DNA from: Gordonia sp. KTR9
GTDB taxonomy: Bacteria; Actinomycetota; Actinomycetes; Mycobacteriales; Mycobacteriaceae
DNA length: 64,000 nt
Reading direction: 5' to 3'
Assembly (NCBI RefSeq): GCF_000143885.2
Contig: NC_018581.1
Coordinates: forward strand, 1-64,000
Position numbers and translations under genes: made by a program. The notes under the pieces were generated by a model, which saw only the letters and a program-made list of their open reading frames with translations, was not told where the DNA came from and did not search any database. Positions 7,710 through 47,997 of the stretch are shown here, piece after piece; position 1 is the stretch's first letter, and every line of letters starts with the position of its first letter.

Positions 7710-10199
7710 ATGACTGACACCACTCTGCCGCCCGCCGGAGGCGAAGGCGATCGCATCGAGCCCGTCGATCTCGGGCAGGAGATGCAGAAGAGCTACATCG
7801 ATTACGCCATGAGCGTGATCGTGGGGCGAGCACTCCCCGAGGTGCGCGACGGCCTGAAGCCGGTGCACCGCCGTCTCCTCTACGCGTCCTTCGATGCCGG
7901 TTTCCGGCCGGACCGCAGTTATGTGAAGTCCGCGAAACCCGTTGCGGAGACGATGGGTAACTATCACCCGCACGGCGACACGGCGATCTACGACGCGCTC
8001 GTCCGACTCGCCCAGCCGTGGTCGATGCGCTACCCGCTCATCGACGGGCAGGGCAACTTCGGCTCGCGCGGCAACGACGGTGCGGCCGCGATGCGGTACA
8101 CCGAGGCGCGTCTCACGCCGCTCGCCATGGAGATGTTGCGTGACATCACCGAGGAGACAGTCGATTTCGTCCCCAACTACGACGGCAAGACGAATGAGCC
8201 GACGGTACTGCCGTCGCGCATCCCGAACCTGCTGATCAATGGCTCCGGCGGTATCGCCGTCGGCATGGCCACCAACATGCCTCCGCACAACCTCAACGAG
8301 GTTGCCGAGGCGGTGTTCTGGGCGCTGGAGAATCACGACGCCGACGACGAGACCACCCTCGCCGCCTGCATGGAGTGCATTAAGGGACCCGACTTCCCCA
8401 CGGCCGGACTGATCGTCGGCAGCCAGGGCATCAAGGACGCCTACACGACCGGTCGCGGCAGCATCCGGATGCGCAGCGTCGTCGACATCGAGGAGAACAA
8501 GGGAGCCACCACGCTGGTGGTAACCGAGTTGCCGTACCAGGTCAACCCGGACAACCTGATCCAGTCGATCGCCGAGCAGGTCAACGAGGGAAAGCTCAAG
8601 GGCATCAGCCGGATCGAGGATCAGTCCTCGGACCGCGTCGGTATGCGCATCGTGGTGACACTGCGTCGTGACGCCGTCGCCAAGGTCGTGCTGAACAACC
8701 TGTACAAGCACAGCCAGCTCCAGACCAGCTTCGGCGCCAACATGCTATCGATCGTCGACGGCGTGCCGCGCACGCTGCGACTCGACCAGATGATCCGCTA
8801 CTACGTGGCGCATCAGATCGACGTCATCGTGCGTCGGACCCGGTACCGGTTGCGCAAGGCCGAGGAGCGCGCGCACATCCTGCGCGGTCTGGTGAAAGCT
8901 CTTGACGCCCTTGACGAAGTGATCGCGCTGATCCGCCGCTCGGCGAACACCGAGACCGCACGCACCGGCCTGATCGACCTCCTCGACATCGACGAGATCC
9001 AGGCCGACGCCATCCTCGCGATGCAGCTGCGCCGGCTGTCGGCATTGGAGCGGCAGAAGATCGTCGACGAGCTCGCCGAGATCGAACTCGAGATCGCCGA
9101 CTACAAGGACATCCTCGACCGGCCGGAGCGTCAGCGCGCGATCGTGCGCGACGAGCTCAAGGAGGTCGTCGACAAGTACGGCGACGAGCGTCGTACGAAG
9201 ATCATCGCGGCCGACGGCGACGTCAGCGACGAGGATCTGATCGCGCGTGAGGACGTTGTCGTCACGATCACCGAGACCGGGTACGCCAAGCGCACCAAGA
9301 CCGACCTGTACCGCAGCCAGCGTCGCGGCGGCAAGGGCGTGCAGGGTGCCGGCCTCAAGCAGGACGACATCGTCAAGCACTTCTTCGTGTGCTCGACCCA
9401 CGACTGGATTCTGTTCTTCACGACCAAGGGACGGGTCTACCGCGCCAAGGCCTACGAGCTGCCCGAGGCCAACCGCACCGCGCGCGGCCAGCACGTCGCC
9501 AACCTCCTCGCCTTCCAGCCGGAGGAGCGCATCGCCCAGGTCATCCAGCTCAAGACCTACGAGGATGCCCCGTACCTGGTGCTCGCCACCCGCAACGGCC
9601 TGGTCAAGAAGTCCCGCCTGGTCGACTTCGACTCGAACCGCTCCGGCGGCATCGCGGCGATCAACCTGCGCGGTGAGGACGAACTGGTCGGCGCCCAGTT
9701 GTGCAGCGCCGACGACGATCTGCTCCTGGTGTCGCAGAAGGGACAGTCGATCCGCTTCCACGCCGACGACGAGGCCCTGCGGCCCATGGGCCGGCAGACC
9801 TCGGGCGTCCAGGGCATGCGGTTCAACACCGACGACACGCTCCTGTCGCTCAACGTCGTCCGCGACGGCACCTACCTCCTGGTCGCGACCTCCGGTGGGT
9901 ACGCCAAGCGGACCGGCATGGACGACTACCCGGTGCAGGGCCGCGGCGGCAAGGGTGTGCTGACGATCGCCCACGATCGACGGCGCGGCGAACTGATCGG
10001 CGCCCTCATCGTCGACGACGACTCCGAGCTCTACGCCATCACCTCGGGCGGCGGCGTCATCCGCACGACGGCGAAGTCGGTCCGCAAGGCCGGTCGCCAG
10101 ACCAAGGGTGTGCGCCTGATGAACATCGACGAGGGAACGACGGTCATCGCGATCGCCCGCAACGCCGACGAGCCGGACGAGACAGAGGTCTCTTCCTAG
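7710..10199 (+). CDS. gyrA: DNA gyrase subunit A
   Basis: GyrA cleaves and rejoins DNA. The 829-residue protein carries the catalytic tyrosine at 130 (AAAMRYTE) and the quinolone-resistance region [15 protein letters not shown], where Thr91 sits at the Escherichia coli Ser83 position and Asp95 at the Asp87 position. The C-terminal half is the DNA-wrapping beta-pinwheel, with a GyrA-box-like [10 protein letters not shown] and a second blade motif [12 protein letters not shown] 7710 follows gyrB closely. The next gene (DUF3566) starts 118 bases later. Confidence 0.98.
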
Positions 10200-35730: not shown

Positions 35731-37071
35731 CTACTGGAACCGGACGGTGATGTCGGAATGTCCCACGCGGATGCGATCGCCGTCGGCGAGTTCCCAGGTG
35801 TTCACCTGGAGATCGTTGACCGTGGTGCCGTTGGTCGAGTTGAGATCGGTGAGCATGGCGGTGGCGCCATCCCACCGGATCTCCACATGGCGACGCGAGA
35901 CGCCGGTATCGGGCAGCCGGAACTGCGCATCCTGTCCGCGGCCGATCACGTTGGAGCCCTCGTGCAGCTGGAACGTGCGGTTGCTGCCGTCTTCGAGGAG
36001 CAGCGTGATCGACGACGGGGCGTACCCGGCTGCCGGACGACCCGCGCCGTAGCCCTGGTCGTAGCCGCCCTGGTAGTCGTAACCCGCGGGTTGCTGGCTG
36101 TAACCCTGCTGGCCGTAGCCCTGGTCGTAACCGGGTTGTTGACCGTAGCCCTGCTGGCCGTAGCCCTGGTCGTACCCGGGTTGCTGGTTGTAGCCCTGCT
36201 GCTCGTAGCCGGGCTGCTGGCCGTATCCCTGGTCGTAACCGGGCTGTTGCCCGTAACCCTGCTGTTCATAGCCGGGTTGTTGGCTGTAACCCTGCTGGCC
36301 GTAGCCCTGGTCGTAGCCGGGCTGCTGGCCGTAGCCCTGCTGGCCGTAGCCGGGTTGCTGGTTGTAACCCTGCTGGTCGTAGGCCTGCTGGTCGTAACCC
36401 TGTTGGCCGTAGGCCTGCTGGTCGTATGCCTGGTCGTAGCCGGGCTGCTGACCGTACTGGTCGTAGCCCTGCTGTCCGTAGCCCTGATCTCCCGGCTGTC
36501 CCGATCCCTGTCCGTACTGGTCGTACGCGGGATCGGCGCCCCTGCGCTGGTCGTATCCGGGATTCTGAGTCATCTTGGGGGCTCCTTGGTCGGGGGCGTT
36601 GGGAAGTGGATGAACAGGGGCCGGGCGACCGGCCGGCGGGCCGGGGACCGGTGCAGGGTGCGGCTGCTCCGAACGCGCCCCCACCGGGCGGGGCCGCGCG
36701 TCCGGGTTGACCGTGCCTCGTGCGCGGAACATCCCCGTGTGCAAGGACGGCGATTGCTCGAACTCTACGACGACGTTGCCGTAGGTCTGCCACCCGTTGT
36801 CTTTGATGAAGTTTTCCAAATGCTTCGAGAAAGTCTTGCGGTTCAGCTCGTATTCCGCAGCGATGTGCTGATGATCGGTGGGACTGAACAGCAACGTGTA
36901 GCTGTTGGCCGCAAGGACCGTACCGTCACCGAGGTTCTCGAGCGACTCCTCGGCTTCTCGCTGCAGCCCGTTCTCGATCTCCTGCGGGGCCACCTGACCA
37001 CCGAAGACGCGGGCAAAACCGTCGTCAACTGCACCTTCGAGCTTGCGTTCCAGTCGTTGCAGGATCCCCAC
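35731..37071 (-). CDS. fhaA: FHA-domain protein FhaA
   Basis: A 446-residue adaptor that, in mycobacteria, binds phosphorylated MviN/MurJ-like protein and regulates cell-wall synthesis. Residues 1-115 form the conserved DUF3662/FhaA N-terminal domain ([20 protein letters not shown]). Residues about 180-340 are a Tyr/Gly/Gln-rich repeat. The last 90 residues are the FHA domain ([36 protein letters not shown]). GTG 37071 is chosen for the AGGAGG five bases upstream. A 227-base gap separates it from fhaB. Confidence 0.94.
36040..36530 (-). repeat. Tandem [13 protein letters not shown] repeat in fhaA
   Basis: About 490 bases encode imperfect repeats such as [10 protein letters not shown] and [10 protein letters not shown]. 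The repeat units on the + strand read as GTAGCCCTGCTGGCCGTAGC variants, so the opposite strand is falsely read as a hydrophobic protein. Such low-complexity Tyr/Gln tracts often support protein clustering. Confidence 0.85.
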
Positions 37072-37260
37072 CGAGACCTCCTTTCGCGGCAATAGAGCGT
37101 GTCGCCGTGCATCTGGCCTTGTTTGATGATAGCGACATCAGCGGCCAACTGTGCCACCAAGGCAACTGGTGCACCGTCTGCAACACCCGCCTCATTGGTG
37201 TGTATTCGGCCTCTGACGTAACCCGACGTACTGCACAGATGCAACGTACGAGATCGAGTT

Positions 37261-40961: not shown

Positions 40962-41711
40962 ATGTTGTTCATCGGCACCTCCGGCTGGCAGTACCGGGAT
41001 TGGCGCGGTGCGTTCTACCCCGAGAAGCTCCCCCAGCGACTGTGGCTGGACTATTACGCCCAACGGTTCCCGACCGCCGAGGTCAACAACACCTTCTACC
41101 GGCTGCCGGAGAAGGAGGCGTTCGAGAACTGGGCCGAGACCGTCCCCGCCGACTTCCGGATGGCGGCGAAGATGAGTCGCTACCTGACGCACATCAAGCG
41201 CCTCAAGGAGCCCGCCGAACCGGTCCAGCGCTTTCTCGATCGATCGGCGGGGCTCGACGGTCGGTTGGGGCCGGTGCTCCTCCAGTTGCCTCCCAACCTC
41301 CGCGCGACACCCGACGCCCTGGACGAGACGCTCGCGCTGTTCCCGAAGACGGTCCAGGTCGCCGTCGAACCCCGGCACGAGTCCTGGTGGACCGACGAGA
41401 CCAGGTCGGTCCTCGAACGGCACAACGCGGCGCTGTGTTGGGCCGACCGGAAGAACCGCATTCTCAATCCACTGTGGCGCACAGCCGATTTCGGGTACCT
41501 GCGACTCCATGACGGGACGTCGCGGCGACCGATGAGTTATGGGTCACGCGCGATCGACAGCTGGCTGCGCCGCCTGACGGAGGCCTACGACGACTCGTGC
41601 GATGTCTACGTGTACTTCAACAACGACCCGGGATGCGCGGCGATCGACAACGCGGTCACCATGATTCGCCGCGCCCAGCGGATGGGGATACCCGTCAAGA
41701 CCGTGGGATGA
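40962..41711 (+). CDS. DUF72 family protein
   Basis: A 249-residue TIM-barrel-like protein. Signature parts are MLFIGTSGWQYRDWRGAFYP, EVNNTFYRLP, FRMAAKMSRYLTHIKRL, LGPVLLQLPPN and VAVEPRHESWW. DUF72 proteins are widespread and have no settled function; a nuclease or hydrolase fold has been proposed. ATG 40962 has AAAGGA upstream. It is the last housekeeping-like gene before the AT-richer island. Confidence 0.92.
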   Translation: MLFIGTSGWQYRDWRGAFYPEKLPQRLWLDYYAQRFPTAEVNNTFYRLPEKEAFENWAETVPADFRMAAKMSRYLTHIKRLKEPAEPVQRFLDRSAGLDGRLGPVLLQLPPNLRATPDALDETLALFPKTVQVAVEPRHESWWTDETRSVLERHNAALCWADRKNRILNPLWRTADFGYLRLHDGTSRRPMSYGSRAIDSWLRRLTEAYDDSCDVYVYFNNDPGCAAIDNAVTMIRRAQRMGIPVKTVG

Positions 41712-41866
41712 CGTTGTGTGCTTCGAGATATGAGCACATCTTCCATGTACGCGGAACTGACAAACTGCCCTAGTACTGACCCGACACAAATAGTTAATTG
41801 CAGCCAGCGAACCACAGCGATTCCCGATCTCTTAACAACTCTAAGCAGAAAAATGCTCGCACTACT
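41712..41866. other. AT-rich left edge of the island
   Basis: This 155-base gap shows a sharp fall in GC compared with the DUF72 gene. It ends at the TIR gene stop. I found no tRNA, integrase or clear attachment repeat. Confidence 0.5.
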
Positions 41867-42466
41867 CTAAGAGCAGGAGGCGCTTCTGAGCCGACGCGGG
41901 CGAGTGTTGTTAATGAGATCACGGCGAGTGGTCCGCGCGTCATATGCATCGCTAATCCAAGCTCTCAGCGAAGTTTTAGTGGCAGGATACGAGAACCATC
42001 GTGCATACCCGGTATCCGTACCAGAGGCGTTACGACTAACATTGTCTTCTACCCGAGCCTGTAAGTCGCCCCCGCTCGGCAATTGAATAGCCAGGAGACC
42101 GTTGACCTTACTCAGTTTGCTATCGCGCAGCGAGGAATAGATCTCCCAGTCCACGTACCGGCGTGCCCACGTACACTTTCCCATCAATGCGATTGTGACT
42201 GTCGAATCGCCCAGGTACTTGGTGCGTATCTGATTCATGACGTAGTCAGTGTCCTGACTATCAATGAAGTCATCCTCGTCGGTAACACCTACGGTTTTGG
42301 CAATAAACTCGGTACCGAACTGCTCGATGAACTCCGCGACCTCGGAGGAGTCTTCGGCATGGTACGACACAAAACACTTGTGACGAGTCGAGTCGAGCTT
42401 CCTGGCTGCCACGCTGGCAGCGAACTGCTCGAGCTGGCGTTGCTGATAGTGCCCGTAATACCCCAC
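41867..42466 (-). CDS. ThsB-like TIR protein (DUF1863/MTH538 type)
   Basis: A 199-residue TIR-like protein. The first strand is KCFVSYHAEDSSEVAEFIEQ (30-49), then a D-rich loop (DEDDFIDSQDTDYVMNQIRT), TVTIALMGKCTWARRYVDWE and IYSSL. Glu108, in the DWEI motif, is the likely NAD-cleaving residue. Family members in Thoeris systems make a NAD-derived signal upon phage infection. GTG 42466 has AGAGAGGA eight bases upstream. It is divergent (59-base region) from the SLATT-type gene. AT-rich codons set it apart from the core genes. No ThsA is nearby. Confidence 0.82.
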   Translation of the reverse strand: MGYYGHYQQRQLEQFAASVAARKLDSTRHKCFVSYHAEDSSEVAEFIEQFGTEFIAKTVGVTDEDDFIDSQDTDYVMNQIRTKYLGDSTVTIALMGKCTWARRYVDWEIYSSLRDSKLSKVNGLLAIQLPSGGDLQARVEDNVSRNASGTDTGYARWFSYPATKTSLRAWISDAYDARTTRRDLINNTRPRRLRSASCS

Positions 42467-42539
42467 CGTGAGATCCTCTCTGCGCTAAGTTCACACACAG
42501 TATGGCGCACAAGACCGACAACGGGTGATGATTGCTCCC

Positions 42540-43433
42540 ATGACGGTTGTTGCTCAAGTTGCAGACTCAGACATGCCGCACCTCTTCCAGGCTGCGGACC
42601 AAGCCTCTCTTGAGGCGCAGAAGTCGTACGTTGGCGGTACCCGCAAGCGACTACTCCTGCTGTCGGCCGCGGCCGTGGCTGGCTTGAGCTCCTGGCGCGT
42701 GGGTACAAGCGGCGTCGATGTGTGGGGTGTTCTAGGCGTGATCACCTTCGTGGGGGCTCTTATTCTTGAACTTAGCGCGTGGCGAACCAGGCCAGATAAG
42801 GCGTGGTATGACGGACGAGCCGTCGCCGAGTCGTCCAAGACTCTAGCTTGGAAATTCGCGGTTTGCGCTCTTCCCTTTCCACGAGAAATCGAATTGGATG
42901 ACGCGCGTGTCGCGCTAATGGAACGGTTCGAAGCGATACAGCATTCGTTTCGAGGACTGGAACTTTCACCAATCGTCGCTCCGGCAATCTCTAGCTGGAT
43001 GATCGAGCAGCGAACATCCTCGTTAGAGGACCGACGCAGTAGCTATCTCGAAGCTAGAATCGCAGATCAAAAGAAGTGGTACATGACCAAGGCTACTTTC
43101 AACAGGAAGAGAGCTACTGCATGGCGGCGCGTCCTCGTTTCCTGCGAATTTCTAGGGGTGGTAACTGCTCTATTCGCAGCTTTAATGCAGGGGTTCGCGC
43201 AAGTGTCGCCAGCAATTGCCGCGGTAGTTGTAGCGATAGTGGCCTGGACTGAGACTAAACAGTACGACTTCAATGCACGCGCGTATGCAGCTGCTGTGAA
43301 CGATCTCACCAATGCCGAGGAGAAACTACGGTTGGCAGTAGATGAGTCATCGTGGGCCAAAGAAGTAGATGACGCAGAAGAAGCTATCAGTCGAGAGCAT
43401 GTTGTGTGGTGGGCGACTCGATCTCGAGTGTGA
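42540..43433 (+). CDS. SLATT/DUF4231-type membrane protein with two 2TM units
   Basis: The protein has two pairs of membrane helices, about 38-80 and 199-240, separated by a helical region with YDGRAVAESSKTLAWKFAVC. The WY..RA..E..K..AW pattern and the paired helices fit SLATT (SMODS- and SLOG-associated 2TM) domains in tandem. SLATT proteins are predicted membrane-damaging effectors fired by nucleotide signals. No signal-binding domain (SLOG, macro) is seen. Start is uncertain: GTG 42525, ATG 42528 and ATG 42540 are in frame. It lies divergent from the TIR gene and convergent with the AAA-TIR gene. Confidence 0.75.
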   Translation: MTVVAQVADSDMPHLFQAADQASLEAQKSYVGGTRKRLLLLSAAAVAGLSSWRVGTSGVDVWGVLGVITFVGALILELSAWRTRPDKAWYDGRAVAESSKTLAWKFAVCALPFPREIELDDARVALMERFEAIQHSFRGLELSPIVAPAISSWMIEQRTSSLEDRRSSYLEARIADQKKWYMTKATFNRKRATAWRRVLVSCEFLGVVTALFAALMQGFAQVSPAIAAVVVAIVAWTETKQYDFNARAYAAAVNDLTNAEEKLRLAVDESSWAKEVDDAEEAISREHVVWWATRSRV

Positions 43434-43504
43434 CCTCACCTTGATCGCTGAGGTCGATCCTCACCCCAGCGCAAGGGGCGGATGTCACGCGACCAATACT
43501 TAAG

Positions 43505-45109
43505 TCAGTCGATTCCCACACTGACGCAGCAGTCTTCGCAGATATTGTACCGGGCGGGAGCCTTCCTGGAATTCGCAAGAACCAAATTGCATCTCGAGCA
43601 GTAGAATTCACCCGCTCGAACCTGGGGTCTAGCCCTCATCCGGGCAATTTTCTTCGCCAAATTATCAGCGAGATCACTAATTTGAGGTTCAATGGGCTGG
43701 TTATCAACAACGAGCCACGAACCTACTTTGTCATGACCGGCCAACAGTGTCTCATTGCTGGCGTCTGAAAACTGGACAGGTATGACATTCTCGGAACCAA
43801 ATCTAGCATGAAACTGTCGGCTTTCAAACTTCGTCCATACCCGTTTTGGGTACTCATTAGACAGAAAGCAGACAACGAAGCTGGCTTGCGATCTATAAAT
43901 TGGGGCCAGGTACTCTTCGAGATTTGTAGCCAGGATCCGATCCTGCTCGTCGTTATCGTAAAAGACACTAATCTCGCGTTCTTTTAAACGGTCGGCCAAG
44001 TAACTAGCAGCGTGCCTTCGGTCCCCTGCGAAAGACAAGGCAAAATCGTATTTCGTATCAAAGTCGATGTTCAGGAATCCGACCATAGCCGCGAACTTGT
44101 CCCAATGCAAATTCCGAAGATAGAATGCGAACTGTGGATCCTCAATGGTTAGAAACTTATTTCGTGAGTCGTAGTGCAAAAGGTGTCCGAATTTGTCATC
44201 GCTGCGAATGTGATCCGATAGGTGGTCACCGTAGACCACCCCGGACACACTAGCCGCGACGTCCGGATGCTTAGCAATTTCTGTGGTAAGTCTTATCGAC
44301 CATTCGTCAGCGGCTGCTAACCATCGGAGCAAATGTAGATATGGAGCCCTTCCTTCGGGATTCAATCGCGGTCCTGCCGCGAATCGTATGGCAACGTCCG
44401 CAAACGTTTCCGCTAGACCGTCTGCGACGTTCTCTAAGACAACTTCGAATGGCACTGAGGGGAGCTGCCTGTCAGGTCGCTGCTTCAAGATGTCGGAGAG
44501 TAGGCAGCACCTGTAAGAAAGCATCTGAGCCAGTTGGAAGCTCCCATGGGCGGCGCGTACGATTTCCTCTACGGGAAGCTCGGCATTCATCACAGCGCAT
44601 CCTTCACGGACGAGACTGGTAACCTTTTGATCAGAGTTCCGGCCAAATTTAATGATATCGACTCGACCAGAGAGGTCGCGTCCGAAGTTCATGAGGGACT
44701 TTCCCGCATCGGTGATTCCCAGCACGACGAGCTTGGTGTCCTCGACGCCTTCGTCCGCAAGAACTTTCATTCTGTCGGCAACACTGCGTTGAACTTCAAT
44801 TGGCAATCGGTGATAGTCGTCGATCACAACTATTCCGATCCCGTCGACTTCAAGAACTGCATCAAGGAGGTCCCTATCTGCCTTCTTCCTTGCACTCAAG
44901 AGCTCTACATGGATATCTGAGTCAAGTTCTTCGTCGATAGCCTTCTGTAGAGCCGTCGTCTTTCCAACACCGGTCGGACCCTCGATAACGACGCATCGTC
45001 CTGGCGTTCGCAGTGCCACAATAAGCGCGTTGAATTCGGCGGGTCTCACGAAAGTATGTTTGGGTATGCCGGATGAGGTGAAGACCTCCTCCAACCGTGG
45101 CGCAGTCAT
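43505..45109 (-). CDS. AAA ATPase-TIR fusion protein with C-terminal zinc ribbon
   Basis: A 534-residue protein. The AAA/STAND-like part (about 20-330) has Walker A GPTGVGKT (44-51) and Walker B VVIDDY (94-99). The TIR domain (about 353-490) has KYDFALSFAGDRRHAASYLA, FYDND, VVCFLSNEYPKRVWTKFES and the probable catalytic Glu429. The end carries CSRC and CEDCC, a zinc-ribbon-like tail. This build matches bacterial anti-phage TIR-NADases controlled by an ATPase sensor. There is no Shine-Dalgarno; TAACCT seven bases upstream of ATG 45109 suggests leaderless mRNA. Confidence 0.85.
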   Translation of the reverse strand: MTAPRLEEVFTSSGIPKHTFVRPAEFNALIVALRTPGRCVVIEGPTGVGKTTALQKAIDEELDSDIHVELLSARKKADRDLLDAVLEVDGIGIVVIDDYHRLPIEVQRSVADRMKVLADEGVEDTKLVVLGITDAGKSLMNFGRDLSGRVDIIKFGRNSDQKVTSLVREGCAVMNAELPVEEIVRAAHGSFQLAQMLSYRCCLLSDILKQRPDRQLPSVPFEVVLENVADGLAETFADVAIRFAAGPRLNPEGRAPYLHLLRWLAAADEWSIRLTTEIAKHPDVAASVSGVVYGDHLSDHIRSDDKFGHLLHYDSRNKFLTIEDPQFAFYLRNLHWDKFAAMVGFLNIDFDTKYDFALSFAGDRRHAASYLADRLKEREISVFYDNDEQDRILATNLEEYLAPIYRSQASFVVCFLSNEYPKRVWTKFESRQFHARFGSENVIPVQFSDASNETLLAGHDKVGSWLVVDNQPIEPQISDLADNLAKKIARMRARPQVRAGEFYCSRCNLVLANSRKAPARYNICEDCCVSVGID

Positions 45110-46270: not shown

Positions 46271-46296
46271 CCGCCTGCGAACATTCGTGATCGACG

Positions 46297-46337
46297 TTGC
46301 GGCAGTTTGGTCCCTGAATTGGAACAAACTGCCGCAA
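46297..46337 (+). terminator. Hairpin after the 28-residue ORF
   Basis: TTGCGGCAGTTTG (46297-46309) and CAAACTGCCGCAA (46325-46337) are perfect 13-base complements with a 15-base loop. It probably ends the small ORF transcript. Confidence 0.75.
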
Positions 46338-46425
46338 CAAACAATTTGAGACCTATTTTCGAAATGAATCCGGCGAATTCGCCGGCAGATCTGGCAGTGT
46401 CTGAAATGTCCGCTAGTGTTTAGCG

Positions 46426-47997
46426 ATGCTCACAGGCACGCGCGGTTCTCGACTGTTGAATCGTCTCTCGGTGGCGGTACTGGTGCTGGCAGTGGCCGCC
46501 GGCCTGTCGATCGTCTCCTCCGGTCCGTCCCAGGCGGCGCCGGTGGTGAATCCCCAGGCCGGAAAGCTGGTCGCGCAGGCGGACTTTAAGGTCAAGCGAG
46601 ACGGCTTCTCGTTCGAGAACTGGGGACCGAACGACGCTCTGCACACTCGCGGCCTGACCATCGATGGCATGCGTGCGGTATTCGGCGACGAGGTCTGCGC
46701 GCGCCTCGTATTGGGTGTGTGCTCGCCGACCACGGTCGCCGAGGTGGTGCAACAGGAATTCAACGAGTCGATGGCGGGCGGGCACTGCTTCGGGATGGCC
46801 GCGCTGGCCGGACTCTATGCCACCAAGCGCCTGAACCCGTTCCCGCTGGCACTGCCCTGGCAGCCGGTCTACAGCATCCGGCCGTCGGCGCCCCTCGATG
46901 AACTCATCGCCCGGATGTTCATCACGCAGGGCTTTCCGCCCACCGACCTCGTCCAATCGGAGGTCACGGTCACACAGGCGTTGTCCCGACTGCGGTCGGC
47001 GTGGGCCCGCAACGACAATTACGTCCTGGCGATCTACACCGACGAGGAGCAGAGCGCCGGACACGCGATCAACCCGATCGCCATTCGCGACCTGGGACAG
47101 GGCAAACGCGGCATCGTCGTCTACGACAACAACTTCCCCGGTGTCGAGAAGATGATCGTCGCCGACCCCGCGGCCAACAGCTGGTACTACTCGACGGCCA
47201 CCAACCCGTCCGAGCCGACGCTGCTGTTCCAGGGGTCGCCGGCCAACAAGATGATGCTCGTGCCGCTGGCACCCATCCTGGCGCGTCACCAGGACCCCGA
47301 CCTGCGCGACGACGAGACCGTGGTCATCGTGTCGGACACCAACGGCGGCGCCCGCGGTGCCGGCGACGTCGACTGGGATGTGCGGGTCACGGATCCGGCC
47401 GGCCGCGCGATCCCGGGCGTCGACCGAAAGATCCTGTTCAACAACGACAACACCGCCACCTTCACGGTGCCCGCGAACCGCGCCTTCCGGATCATCGTCG
47501 ACGGGGTGGAAGCCGGTCGTTCCGCGGACATCGATGCGACGGTGCTCAGCGCGGGCGGCGTGGTCGCGATGGGTGATCTGGAGGTGCCCGCGGGTGCCGT
47601 CGCGGTCGTCGACGCCGACCCGGCGCGACATGGGATGCGGGTGACCTCGTCAGCAGCGTCGACCGCGGAATTCGAGGTTGCGACCGAGAACTCGCTGCGT
47701 TCGCTGTCGACCGAGACCACACAGCTCGCAATCGGCCCGAACTCGGCGGTCTCGGTGGGTGCCACGTCCCCGGCCGGTGTCACCATCCGCTCCGAGGGGC
47801 GCGCGCAGCGGCTCCGACTGGAGGTCGAGCGAAGCGACACCTTCACCGATCGGATCGCGGTCAGCCCCGGGCAGATCTCGCTGCCCGCCGGCGCGACGAT
47901 CACGGTGCCGGTGAATCTCTGGCCGGGATTCGGACCGCTCCCCGCGACCGTTCGTAGCGGCCCGTCGATCACCGCAGTTCCCCTCAGCGCGCGGTGA
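46426..47997 (+). CDS. Secreted papain-like-fold protein
   Basis: A 523-residue protein with a Sec signal peptide (cleavage near PSQAA-PVVN, about 38). The first domain has an ordered Cys-His-Asp set: Cys121 in GGHCFGMAALAGL, His213 in SAGHAINPIAI and Asp234 in VYDNNFPG, the pattern of papain-like cysteine proteases or acyltransferases. The rest is beta-rich and probably extracellular. The substrate is unknown. ATG 46426 has TAGTGT exactly six bases upstream and no Shine-Dalgarno, so leaderless mRNA is likely. It overlaps the next gene by four bases (GTGA). Confidence 0.72.
   Translation: MLTGTRGSRLLNRLSVAVLVLAVAAGLSIVSSGPSQAAPVVNPQAGKLVAQADFKVKRDGFSFENWGPNDALHTRGLTIDGMRAVFGDEVCARLVLGVCSPTTVAEVVQQEFNESMAGGHCFGMAALAGLYATKRLNPFPLALPWQPVYSIRPSAPLDELIARMFITQGFPPTDLVQSEVTVTQALSRLRSAWARNDNYVLAIYTDEEQSAGHAINPIAIRDLGQGKRGIVVYDNNFPGVEKMIVADPAANSWYYSTATNPSEPTLLFQGSPANKMMLVPLAPILARHQDPDLRDDETVVIVSDTNGGARGAGDVDWDVRVTDPAGRAIPGVDRKILFNNDNTATFTVPANRAFRIIVDGVEAGRSADIDATVLSAGGVVAMGDLEVPAGAVAVVDADPARHGMRVTSSAASTAEFEVATENSLRSLSTETTQLAIGPNSAVSVGATSPAGVTIRSEGRAQRLRLEVERSDTFTDRIAVSPGQISLPAGATITVPVNLWPGFGPLPATVRSGPSITAVPLSAR

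What the first reader, a model, noticed from the sequence alone, without database searches (positions are those of the whole stretch)
41867..45109. Candidate anti-phage system: ThsB-like TIR, SLATT 2TM effector and AAA-TIR
Three immune-type genes lie in one AT-richer island: a DUF1863/ThsB-like TIR protein, a tandem SLATT/DUF4231 membrane protein divergent from it, and an AAA-TIR protein with a zinc ribbon. In Thoeris, TIR proteins make a NAD-derived signal that triggers an effector. Here a SLATT membrane protein without a recognisable SLOG or macro sensor takes the effector place, and a second TIR enzyme is added. I do not know of a described system with this set. That the genes work together is inferred from adjacency.
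Basis: partly seen in the sequence, partly recalled or inferred. Interest (0 to 1): 0.85.

Follow-up and report, generated by a model that had tools for sequence, protein, structure and literature searches.

The report
Thoeris-like TIR–SLATT pair plus AAA-TIR gene
An island in an actinobacterial genome carries a TIR enzyme beside a membrane protein, a linked pair seen in many bacteria that probably kills the cell during virus attack through a TIR-made signal; the third gene looks like an exchangeable extra, and nothing was tested at the bench.

Summary
The three genes are real and intact: a ThsB-like TIR (41867-42466 -), a tandem SLATT_3-SLATT_1 membrane protein (42525-43433 +) and an AAA-TIR protein (43505-45109 -), in the only AT-rich stretch of the window. 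TIR and SLATT form a conserved pair: 22 of 79 related TIR loci have SLATT overlapping or within 40 bp, in three gene orders, and the two proteins diverge in step (r = 0.88). AAA-TIR is not a core member: 0 of those 79 loci have it, and its relatives on five plasmids have no SLATT nearby. Yet in the window's closest clade, 4 of 4 TIR–SLATT loci carry a further, mutually unrelated TIR, SEFIR or weakly TIR-like gene in the same convergent slot. Members of the same TIR clade also sit beside SIR2-SLOG (the canonical Thoeris effector), SLOG, TPR-S or single-TM proteins. Best reading: a two-gene Thoeris-like abortive-infection module with SLATT as membrane effector, plus an optional TIR-type accessory gene. 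TIR–SLATT association is already in print as a prediction (PMC9503650), so this is a new variant of a known kind. No function was tested; no structure model could be made.

The parts
41867..42466 (-). ThsB-like TIR-domain protein, 199 aa (candidate NAD-consuming signal maker; Glu108 in an invariant D-W-E)
   Evidence: Pfam PF08937 E 4e-16; profile matches solved ThsB chains 6lhy/9b7d E 2e-6 with this Glu aligned; invariant in 63 rows
42467..42524 (.). 58-bp gap between the divergent start codons of TIR and SLATT; possibly a shared regulatory region (inference)
   Evidence: coordinates; no consensus promoter found there
42525..43433 (+). tandem SLATT_3-SLATT_1 membrane protein, 302 aa; hydrophobic stretches at about 61-88 and 201-245; candidate membrane-disrupting effector
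   Evidence: Pfam E 5e-39 and 2e-30; hydropathy; adjacent to the same TIR clade in 22 of 79 loci
43505..45109 (-). AAA P-loop + TIR_2 protein, 534 aa, with C-terminal Cys-rich tail; accessory, separately inherited TIR-type gene convergent with SLATT
   Evidence: Pfam; homologues on plasmids of unrelated taxa; 0 of 79 TIR loci; slot filled by other genes in nearest relatives
41712..45109 (.). AT-rich island holding the three genes, between two genes conserved in the genus (40962-41711 and 46426-47997)
   Evidence: GC profile; flanks matched in relatives but 4-41 kb apart there; no flanking direct repeats

Best explanation
The TIR and SLATT genes form a two-gene, Thoeris-like abortive-infection module. 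Inferred mechanism: on phage infection the ThsB-like TIR is activated and turns NAD+ into an ADP-ribose-type signal; the signal opens or assembles the tandem SLATT membrane protein, which breaks the membrane barrier so that the cell dies or stops growing before phage release. The AAA-TIR is an accessory, separately inherited TIR-type defence gene placed in a slot beside the pair. Shown here: domains, invariant catalytic-type residues, adjacency, co-divergence, and different partners around one TIR clade. Inferred: NAD+ use, signal, ligand, pore, phage restriction.
For: SLATT overlapping or within 40 bp in 22 of 79 TIR loci. Adjacency kept in three arrangements (23 loci with the window: 5 divergent, 3 SLATT>TIR, 15 TIR>SLATT); mirror correlation 0.88, 0 of 10000 permutations as high. 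In a survey not selected for TIR, 7 of 19 full-length SLATT_3-1 loci, window included, touch a ThsB-like TIR and 3 more have a TIR_2 gene within 1 kb. One TIR of the clade sits beside SIR2-STALD, the architecture of the canonical Thoeris effector (L070), others beside SLOG proteins, as expected of a signal maker. TIR profile matches solved ThsB. On plasmids, the 4 SLATT hits that I opened (of 79 records) all have an annotated TIR gene within 60 bp. In print (passages): a SLATT gene is required for defence in DRT10 (PMC12632851; its SLATT family was not compared here); SLATT is predicted to be an ADPr-derivative-regulated membrane effector (PMC9503650).
Against: 9 of 19 full-length SLATT loci have no TIR match within 1 kb; five of these are g22 genomes with a lone SLATT of host-like GC, so SLATT has TIR-independent uses. 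57 of 79 TIR loci lack a strict SLATT match (some contigs are short). A Klebsiella 5-kb plasmid has the TIR but no SLATT-profile match. No ligand-binding domain is recognised in SLATT, no convincing solved homologue, no structure model could be made. PADLOC gives no match for the SLATT. No activity data.
Confidence: 0.66

Rival explanations
1. Plug-in sensor model: SLATT is a shared effector driven by either of two TIR-family enzymes, the ThsB-like TIR and whichever TIR-type gene fills the convergent slot (here AAA-TIR), each recognising different phage triggers.
For: In the closest clade 4 of 4 SLATT loci have a TIR, SEFIR or weakly TIR-like gene convergent with SLATT, with unrelated architectures: AAA-TIR, SEFIR, 305-aa TIR_2, and a 353-aa protein with weak matches. 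A Rhodococcus plasmid keeps SLATT plus the same 305-aa TIR (80% identical) but no ThsB-like TIR beside SLATT. G111, G109 and G583 have SLATT within 1 kb of a TIR_2 gene and no match to the window TIR profile; G583's TIR also passes the ThsB_TIR cut-off narrowly.
Against: n is small and there is no control for how often defence islands hold TIR genes anyway. 11 of 15 TIR>SLATT loci have no second TIR in the stretch fetched, and divergent L064 has none in the slot. The SEFIR gene matches PADLOC bSEFIR, recalled as a stand-alone system. The 353-aa gene had no Pfam match at 0.05, only PF05014 E 0.24 and a PADLOC TIR-effector E 1e-5.
Confidence: 0.2
2. AAA-TIR is an independent single-gene defence (AAA sensor, TIR NADase) that merely sits in the same island.
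For: Homologues at 31-46% identity on plasmids of Gloeothece, Azospirillum, Curtobacterium, Acetobacter and Pantoea and at 40% in G070; no SLATT-profile match in the stretches fetched around these six. Conserved P-loop and TIR Glu. Absent from 79 TIR loci.
Against: In 3 of the 5 plasmids a ThsB_TIR gene lies within 4 kb (Curtobacterium with a caspase gene, Pantoea with patatin-SLOG2, Gloeothece with Nmad2), so it may be a recurrent companion of Thoeris-like modules; no background rate was measured.
Confidence: 0.6
3. The TIR kills by NAD+ depletion itself and SLATT is an immunity or regulatory membrane protein (toxin-antitoxin-like pair).
For: Two-gene compact cassette on a small plasmid; divergent arrangement in the window clade.
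Against: The same TIR clade has SLATT, SIR2-SLOG, SLOG, TPR-S and single-TM partners, which fits an effector slot better than one conserved antitoxin; lone SLATT genes exist.
Confidence: 0.12

Closest known systems
TIR-SLATT gene pairs of firmicute phages (PMC9503650; passages read)
   Same: TIR gene directly beside a SLATT gene. In Streptococcus satellite phage Javan281 the window TIR matches at 36% over 53% of its length, that gene carries PF08937, and the gene before it matches the window-type SLATT profile (E 3e-8)
   Different: Actinobacterial chromosome, tandem SLATT_3-SLATT_1 of 302 aa against a phage SLATT ORF of about 144 aa, divergent order, AAA-TIR accessory; the single window SLATT finds no match in the phage records
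Thoeris type I (ThsB TIR + SIR2-SLOG ThsA)
   Same: PF08937 TIR; a member of the same TIR clade is paired with SIR2-STALD (L070)
   Different: Effector here is SLATT, with no SIR2 or STALD; no STALD found in the genome, though that search had no positive control
Thoeris type II (TIR + TM-macro; His-ADPR; passages of PMC12847820 and PMC11204291)
   Same: TIR plus membrane effector
   Different: No macro domain in the window effector
Thoeris type IV (TIR + caspase; N7-cADPR; passage of PMC12847820)
   Same: PF08937 TIR; an AAA-TIR homologue lies near a caspase-TIR pair in Curtobacterium
   Different: No protease domain in the three window proteins
DRT10 (PMC12632851, passages read)
   Same: A SLATT protein required for phage defence
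   Different: Partner is a reverse transcriptase and ncRNA, not TIR; its SLATT family was not compared

Membership tests
Thoeris (any type) | ThsB-type TIR protein | tested here: met
   PF08937 E 4e-16 over cut-off; match to solved ThsB
Thoeris type I | SIR2-SLOG (STALD) ThsA effector next to the TIR | tested here: not met
   Neighbour is SLATT; PF18185 gave no match in the genome, but no control genome rang either
Thoeris type II | TM-macro effector next to the TIR | tested here: not met
   No macro domain in the adjacent protein; rest of the genome not searched for it
Thoeris type IV | caspase-like protease next to the TIR | tested here: not met
   No such domain in the two other island proteins; rest of the genome not searched for it
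Thoeris (any type) | TIR makes a signal that activates the effector | not testable with these tools
   biochemistry needed
TIR-SLATT pair (predicted in PMC9503650) | TIR and SLATT genes adjacent and conserved as neighbours | tested here: met
   22 of 79 TIR loci; co-divergence r 0.88; the phage named in the paper has both by profile
   0 of 79 TIR loci; no SLATT match around six AAA-TIR relatives
CBASS | CD-NTase (SMODS) gene | tested here: not met
   No such domain in the three proteins; flanking ORFs were not scanned

The most novel reading that the evidence does not exclude
The SLATT membrane protein is a common effector onto which TIR-family sensor genes are exchanged: the ThsB-like TIR on one side and, on the other, a slot that takes AAA-TIR, SEFIR, TIR_2 or weakly TIR-like enzymes, all converging on one ADP-ribose-type signal. 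More widely, one TIR clade would have swapped its effector among SIR2-SLOG, SLATT, SLOG, TPR-S and an unnamed single-TM protein.
Probability: 0.2. Interest if true: 0.75.

Novelty: new variant of a known kind. Interest (0 to 1): 0.52.

Why it matters
SLATT proteins are predicted in print to answer nucleotide or ADP-ribose signals, but I saw no tested TIR-SLATT system or ligand in the passages read or in the listings. A compact two-gene TIR-SLATT cassette, in a TIR clade that also holds a SIR2-SLOG pairing, makes it directly testable whether a TIR product opens a SLATT membrane protein and whether one TIR family can drive several effector types.

Tried and rejected
Rejected: a conserved three-gene system. 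Rejected: chance adjacency. Rejected: SLATT homology of the single-TM partner family A6 (hhalign probability 0.2%). Looked for and not found: direct repeats at the island borders; a match to the single window SLATT in phage records; TIR or AAA-TIR relatives in viral contigs (one SLATT relative, L148, was not followed up). AAA-TIR in phage records: one partial match. AAA-TIR profile in 396 phylum genomes: only the window full length, four partial. Partial SLATT_3 matches (under 100 bits) were left aside; G345 was fetched but not counted. Of 148 plasmid records with a TIR match I opened two, of 79 with a SLATT match four. Gene calls are rough: one search failed to place the TIR gene in 21 of 79 loci and one search missed the island's own genes, so counts rest on six-frame profile searches.

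Not possible: structure models; the 2015 SLATT paper is not held.
Full report
What is there. The window comes from an actinobacterium whose genus group g1 also holds G372; that genome's contig has the same length (79317) as the Gordonia effusa contig of L085, so the genus is very probably Gordonia (inference). Three intact ORFs fill 41867-45109. The first (minus strand, 199 aa) is a ThsB-type TIR (PF08937 E 4e-16). The second (plus strand, 302 aa) is a tandem SLATT_3-SLATT_1 protein (E 5e-39 and 2e-30). The third (minus strand, 534 aa) has a P-loop AAA part and a C-terminal TIR_2 domain. TIR and SLATT are divergent with 58 bp between their starts; SLATT and AAA-TIR are convergent with 71 bp between their ends. 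The genes have 0.51-0.55 GC in a window of 0.668, and every 1-kb window under 0.58 GC starts between 41301 and 44601. The genome has one ThsB_TIR, one SLATT_3 and one SLATT_1 match and two TIR_2 matches, one of them here.

Setting. The left flanking gene (40962-41711; DUF72-like, name recalled) was matched in 13 of 31 genomes of the genus and the right one (46426-47997, 523 aa) in 8 of 31, the window's own counted in both. In the five other genomes where both lie on one contig they are 4.0, 15.4, 15.9, 17.4 and 41.4 kb apart; in the window 4.7 kb. What lies between them there looks different from the window (rough gene calls, not annotated further). No direct repeats mark the ends of the island.

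Do TIR and SLATT belong together? A scan of genome contigs with a five-sequence TIR alignment gave 79 loci (115 stretches, 92 relatives, 80 kept). SLATT matched at E < 1e-30 in 22 of 79; one more, L107, has a weak 2e-7 match. Several contigs are short, so 22 is a lower bound. In these 22 loci the two genes overlap or lie at most 39 bp apart (start codons chosen by script), in the window 58 bp, in three arrangements: divergent (5, window included), SLATT before TIR (3), TIR before SLATT (15). Pairwise distances of TIR and SLATT correlate with r = 0.88, and 0 of 10000 permutations reach this. Shared descent explains part of that, but adjacency kept through rearrangement is the mark of a working unit.

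A survey that did not select for TIR: PF18184 matched in 22 of 401 family genomes and 12 of 396 phylum genomes, the window's genome counted in both. I took the full-length matches (over 100 bits): 16 plus 3, window included; the other matches were left aside (G345 was fetched but not counted). Of these, some touch a ThsB-like TIR, 3 more have a TIR_2 gene within 1 kb (G111 470 bp, G583 overlapping, G109 992 bp) and 9 have no TIR match within 1 kb (Pfam). ThsB_TIR itself matched in 53 of 401 family genomes; that search missed two TIR genes (G256, G012) that Pfam scores at 1e-9, so it is a lower bound.

Plasmids and phages. 79 of 72,556 plasmid records have a SLATT match. I opened four: in all four a TIR gene is annotated within 60 bp of SLATT (Rhodococcus, Klebsiella twice, Vibrio vulnificus), one of them a 5.2-kb plasmid whose pair Pfam confirms as SLATT_3-SLATT_1 and ThsB_TIR. 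Of 148 plasmid records with a TIR match I opened two: Vibrio harveyi has SLATT 109 bp away, a 5-kb Klebsiella plasmid has no SLATT-profile match. In phage records the window SLATT found nothing and the window TIR found 10 records. One of these is Javan281, where the gene directly before the TIR matches the SLATT profile (E 3e-8 in a small search).

Is AAA-TIR part of it? With the window AAA-TIR as query 0 of 79 TIR loci had a relative; with a six-sequence profile only L096 gave a weak match, 5e-5, in another TIR protein. In 301 family genomes only the window and G070 (40% identity over residues 6-447, at a contig end) had long strong matches; eleven further genomes had weak partial ones. In 396 phylum genomes only the window had a full-length match. 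Among 72,556 plasmid records 8 matched, 5 over at least 80% of the protein: Gloeothece, Azospirillum, Curtobacterium, Acetobacter and Pantoea. No SLATT-profile match lies in the stretches fetched around these five and G070. Yet in 3 of the 5 a ThsB_TIR gene lies within 4 kb: with a caspase gene in Curtobacterium, with patatin-SLOG2 in Pantoea, and beside Nmad2 in Gloeothece. It is an independently inherited TIR-type gene that may favour the company of Thoeris-like modules; no background rate was measured.

The third slot. In the six-row clade that holds the window TIR (SH-aLRT 99) four loci have SLATT, and in all four a TIR, SEFIR or weakly TIR-like gene is convergent with SLATT: AAA-TIR (window); a 305-aa TIR_2 protein (Rhodococcus L059/L048); a SEFIR protein with an FtsK-type match, PADLOC bSEFIR E 1e-29 (Mycobacterium L058); and a 353-aa protein with only weak support (no Pfam match at 0.05, Nuc_deoxyrib_tr E 0.24, PADLOC TIR effector E 1e-5; Nocardia L060/L043). 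The other two of the six lack a SLATT match: L057 has other neighbours and L061 is a 3.2-kb contig. A Rhodococcus erythropolis plasmid has SLATT at 63.5% identity with the same 305-aa TIR at 80% identity, but an IS3 transposase and another TIR_2 gene where the ThsB-like TIR would be. Against a general rule: Actinomadura L064 is divergent but has no second TIR, and 11 of 15 TIR>SLATT loci have no second TIR match in the stretch fetched.

Other partners of the same TIR clade. Among the loci without SLATT, neighbour clusters and Pfam on representatives show: a single-TM family, mostly 180-280 aa, without Pfam match in three tested members (cluster of 21 loci, counted on raw ORFs; not SLATT by profile comparison); TIR_2 plus SLOG cluster3; TIR_2-SLOG cluster2 fusions; TPR-S proteins; and in L070 a SIR2-STALD protein, the architecture of the Thoeris type I effector (that STALD marks ThsA is recalled). 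On a tree of 63 TIR rows (the window and 62 rows chosen by me from the 79 loci; short, truncated and some similar ones left out; partner labels assigned by me from the calls named) partner classes need 20 changes against a shuffled mean of 35.5: clustered, but exchanged several times. SLATT alone needs 8 changes, of which well-supported branches force at least 3; the SLOG2 label is not clustered at all. Pfam was not run on all 57 non-SLATT loci.

Mechanism. The simplest reading is a signal-maker and membrane-effector pair. The TIR matches solved ThsB proteins, with the conserved Glu aligned. In print (passages seen): TIR-made cyclic ADP-ribose isomers and His-ADPR drive Thoeris effectors; SLATT is predicted to be an ADPr-derivative-regulated membrane effector; and a SLATT gene is needed for DRT10 defence. 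What remains inferred is that this TIR consumes NAD+, that SLATT senses the product, and that it breaks the membrane.

Novelty. TIR beside SLATT is in print as a gene-neighbourhood prediction for firmicute phages, with Javan281 named (PMC9503650, passages), and both genes of Javan281 are related to the window's by profile. I found no paper in the library that describes a tested TIR-SLATT system or a Thoeris type with SLATT (searches; listings and the passages named; the library lacks most subscription papers, and the founding SLATT paper is not held). PADLOC of 2023 recognises the TIR as ThsB-like but gives no match for the SLATT. Hence a new variant of a known kind, with an exchangeable accessory slot as the freshest element.

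Noticed in passing
L070:5877-7745 with TIR at 7950-8537: A TIR of the window's clade in an Armatimonadota genome sits about 250 bp after a SIR2-STALD gene, the canonical Thoeris I effector architecture.
   Followed up: partly
L113:8537-9199, L100:3874-4530, L069:7205-8005 and others (alignment A6): A single-TM protein family, mostly 180-280 aa, without Pfam match in three tested members is a frequent partner of this TIR clade, in several loci with a further TIR_2 gene nearby; a candidate unnamed effector.
   Followed up: partly
L066, L067, L071, L074, L079, L080, L083, L094: ThsB-like TIR followed by a second TIR and, as read by Pfam in L067, a SLOG cluster3 protein: a repeated three-gene order in Actinobacteria.
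   Followed up: partly
L075, L084, L134: The same TIR clade next to TIR_2-SLOG cluster2 fusion proteins, an effector design parallel to SIR2-SLOG.
   Followed up: no
L152:8082-9445, L154:7844-10145, L150:690-1823: AAA-TIR homologues lie within 4 kb of ThsB_TIR genes whose neighbours are a caspase, a patatin-SLOG2 protein and an Nmad2 protein.
   Followed up: partly
L159:3338-4632: A 5.2-kb Klebsiella plasmid carries SLATT_3-SLATT_1 with a convergent 134-aa ThsB_TIR gene: the pair in minimal form.
   Followed up: partly
L169:2561-3582: In Streptococcus satellite phage Javan281 the ORF directly before the ThsB_TIR gene matches the window-type SLATT profile, E 3e-8.
   Followed up: partly
L048:9460-10326: A DUF4062-like gene (E 1e-4, just under cut-off) follows the ThsB-like TIR in Rhodococcus sp. 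ARC_M6; the listed abstract of PMC13174449 calls DUF4062 a TIR-like NADase family.
   Followed up: no
L040, L041, L042, L045, L046: A lone tandem SLATT gene of host-like GC without a TIR match within the stretch, in five g22 genomes with neighbours of similar length.
   Followed up: no
window 35731-37092: FHA-type protein with a long PGYGQQ/YDQQ low-complexity repeat between its ends (sequence; domain name recalled).
   Followed up: no
window 46296-46338: 18-nt inverted repeat (94% complementary, 7-nt loop) upstream of the conserved 523-aa gene.
   Followed up: no
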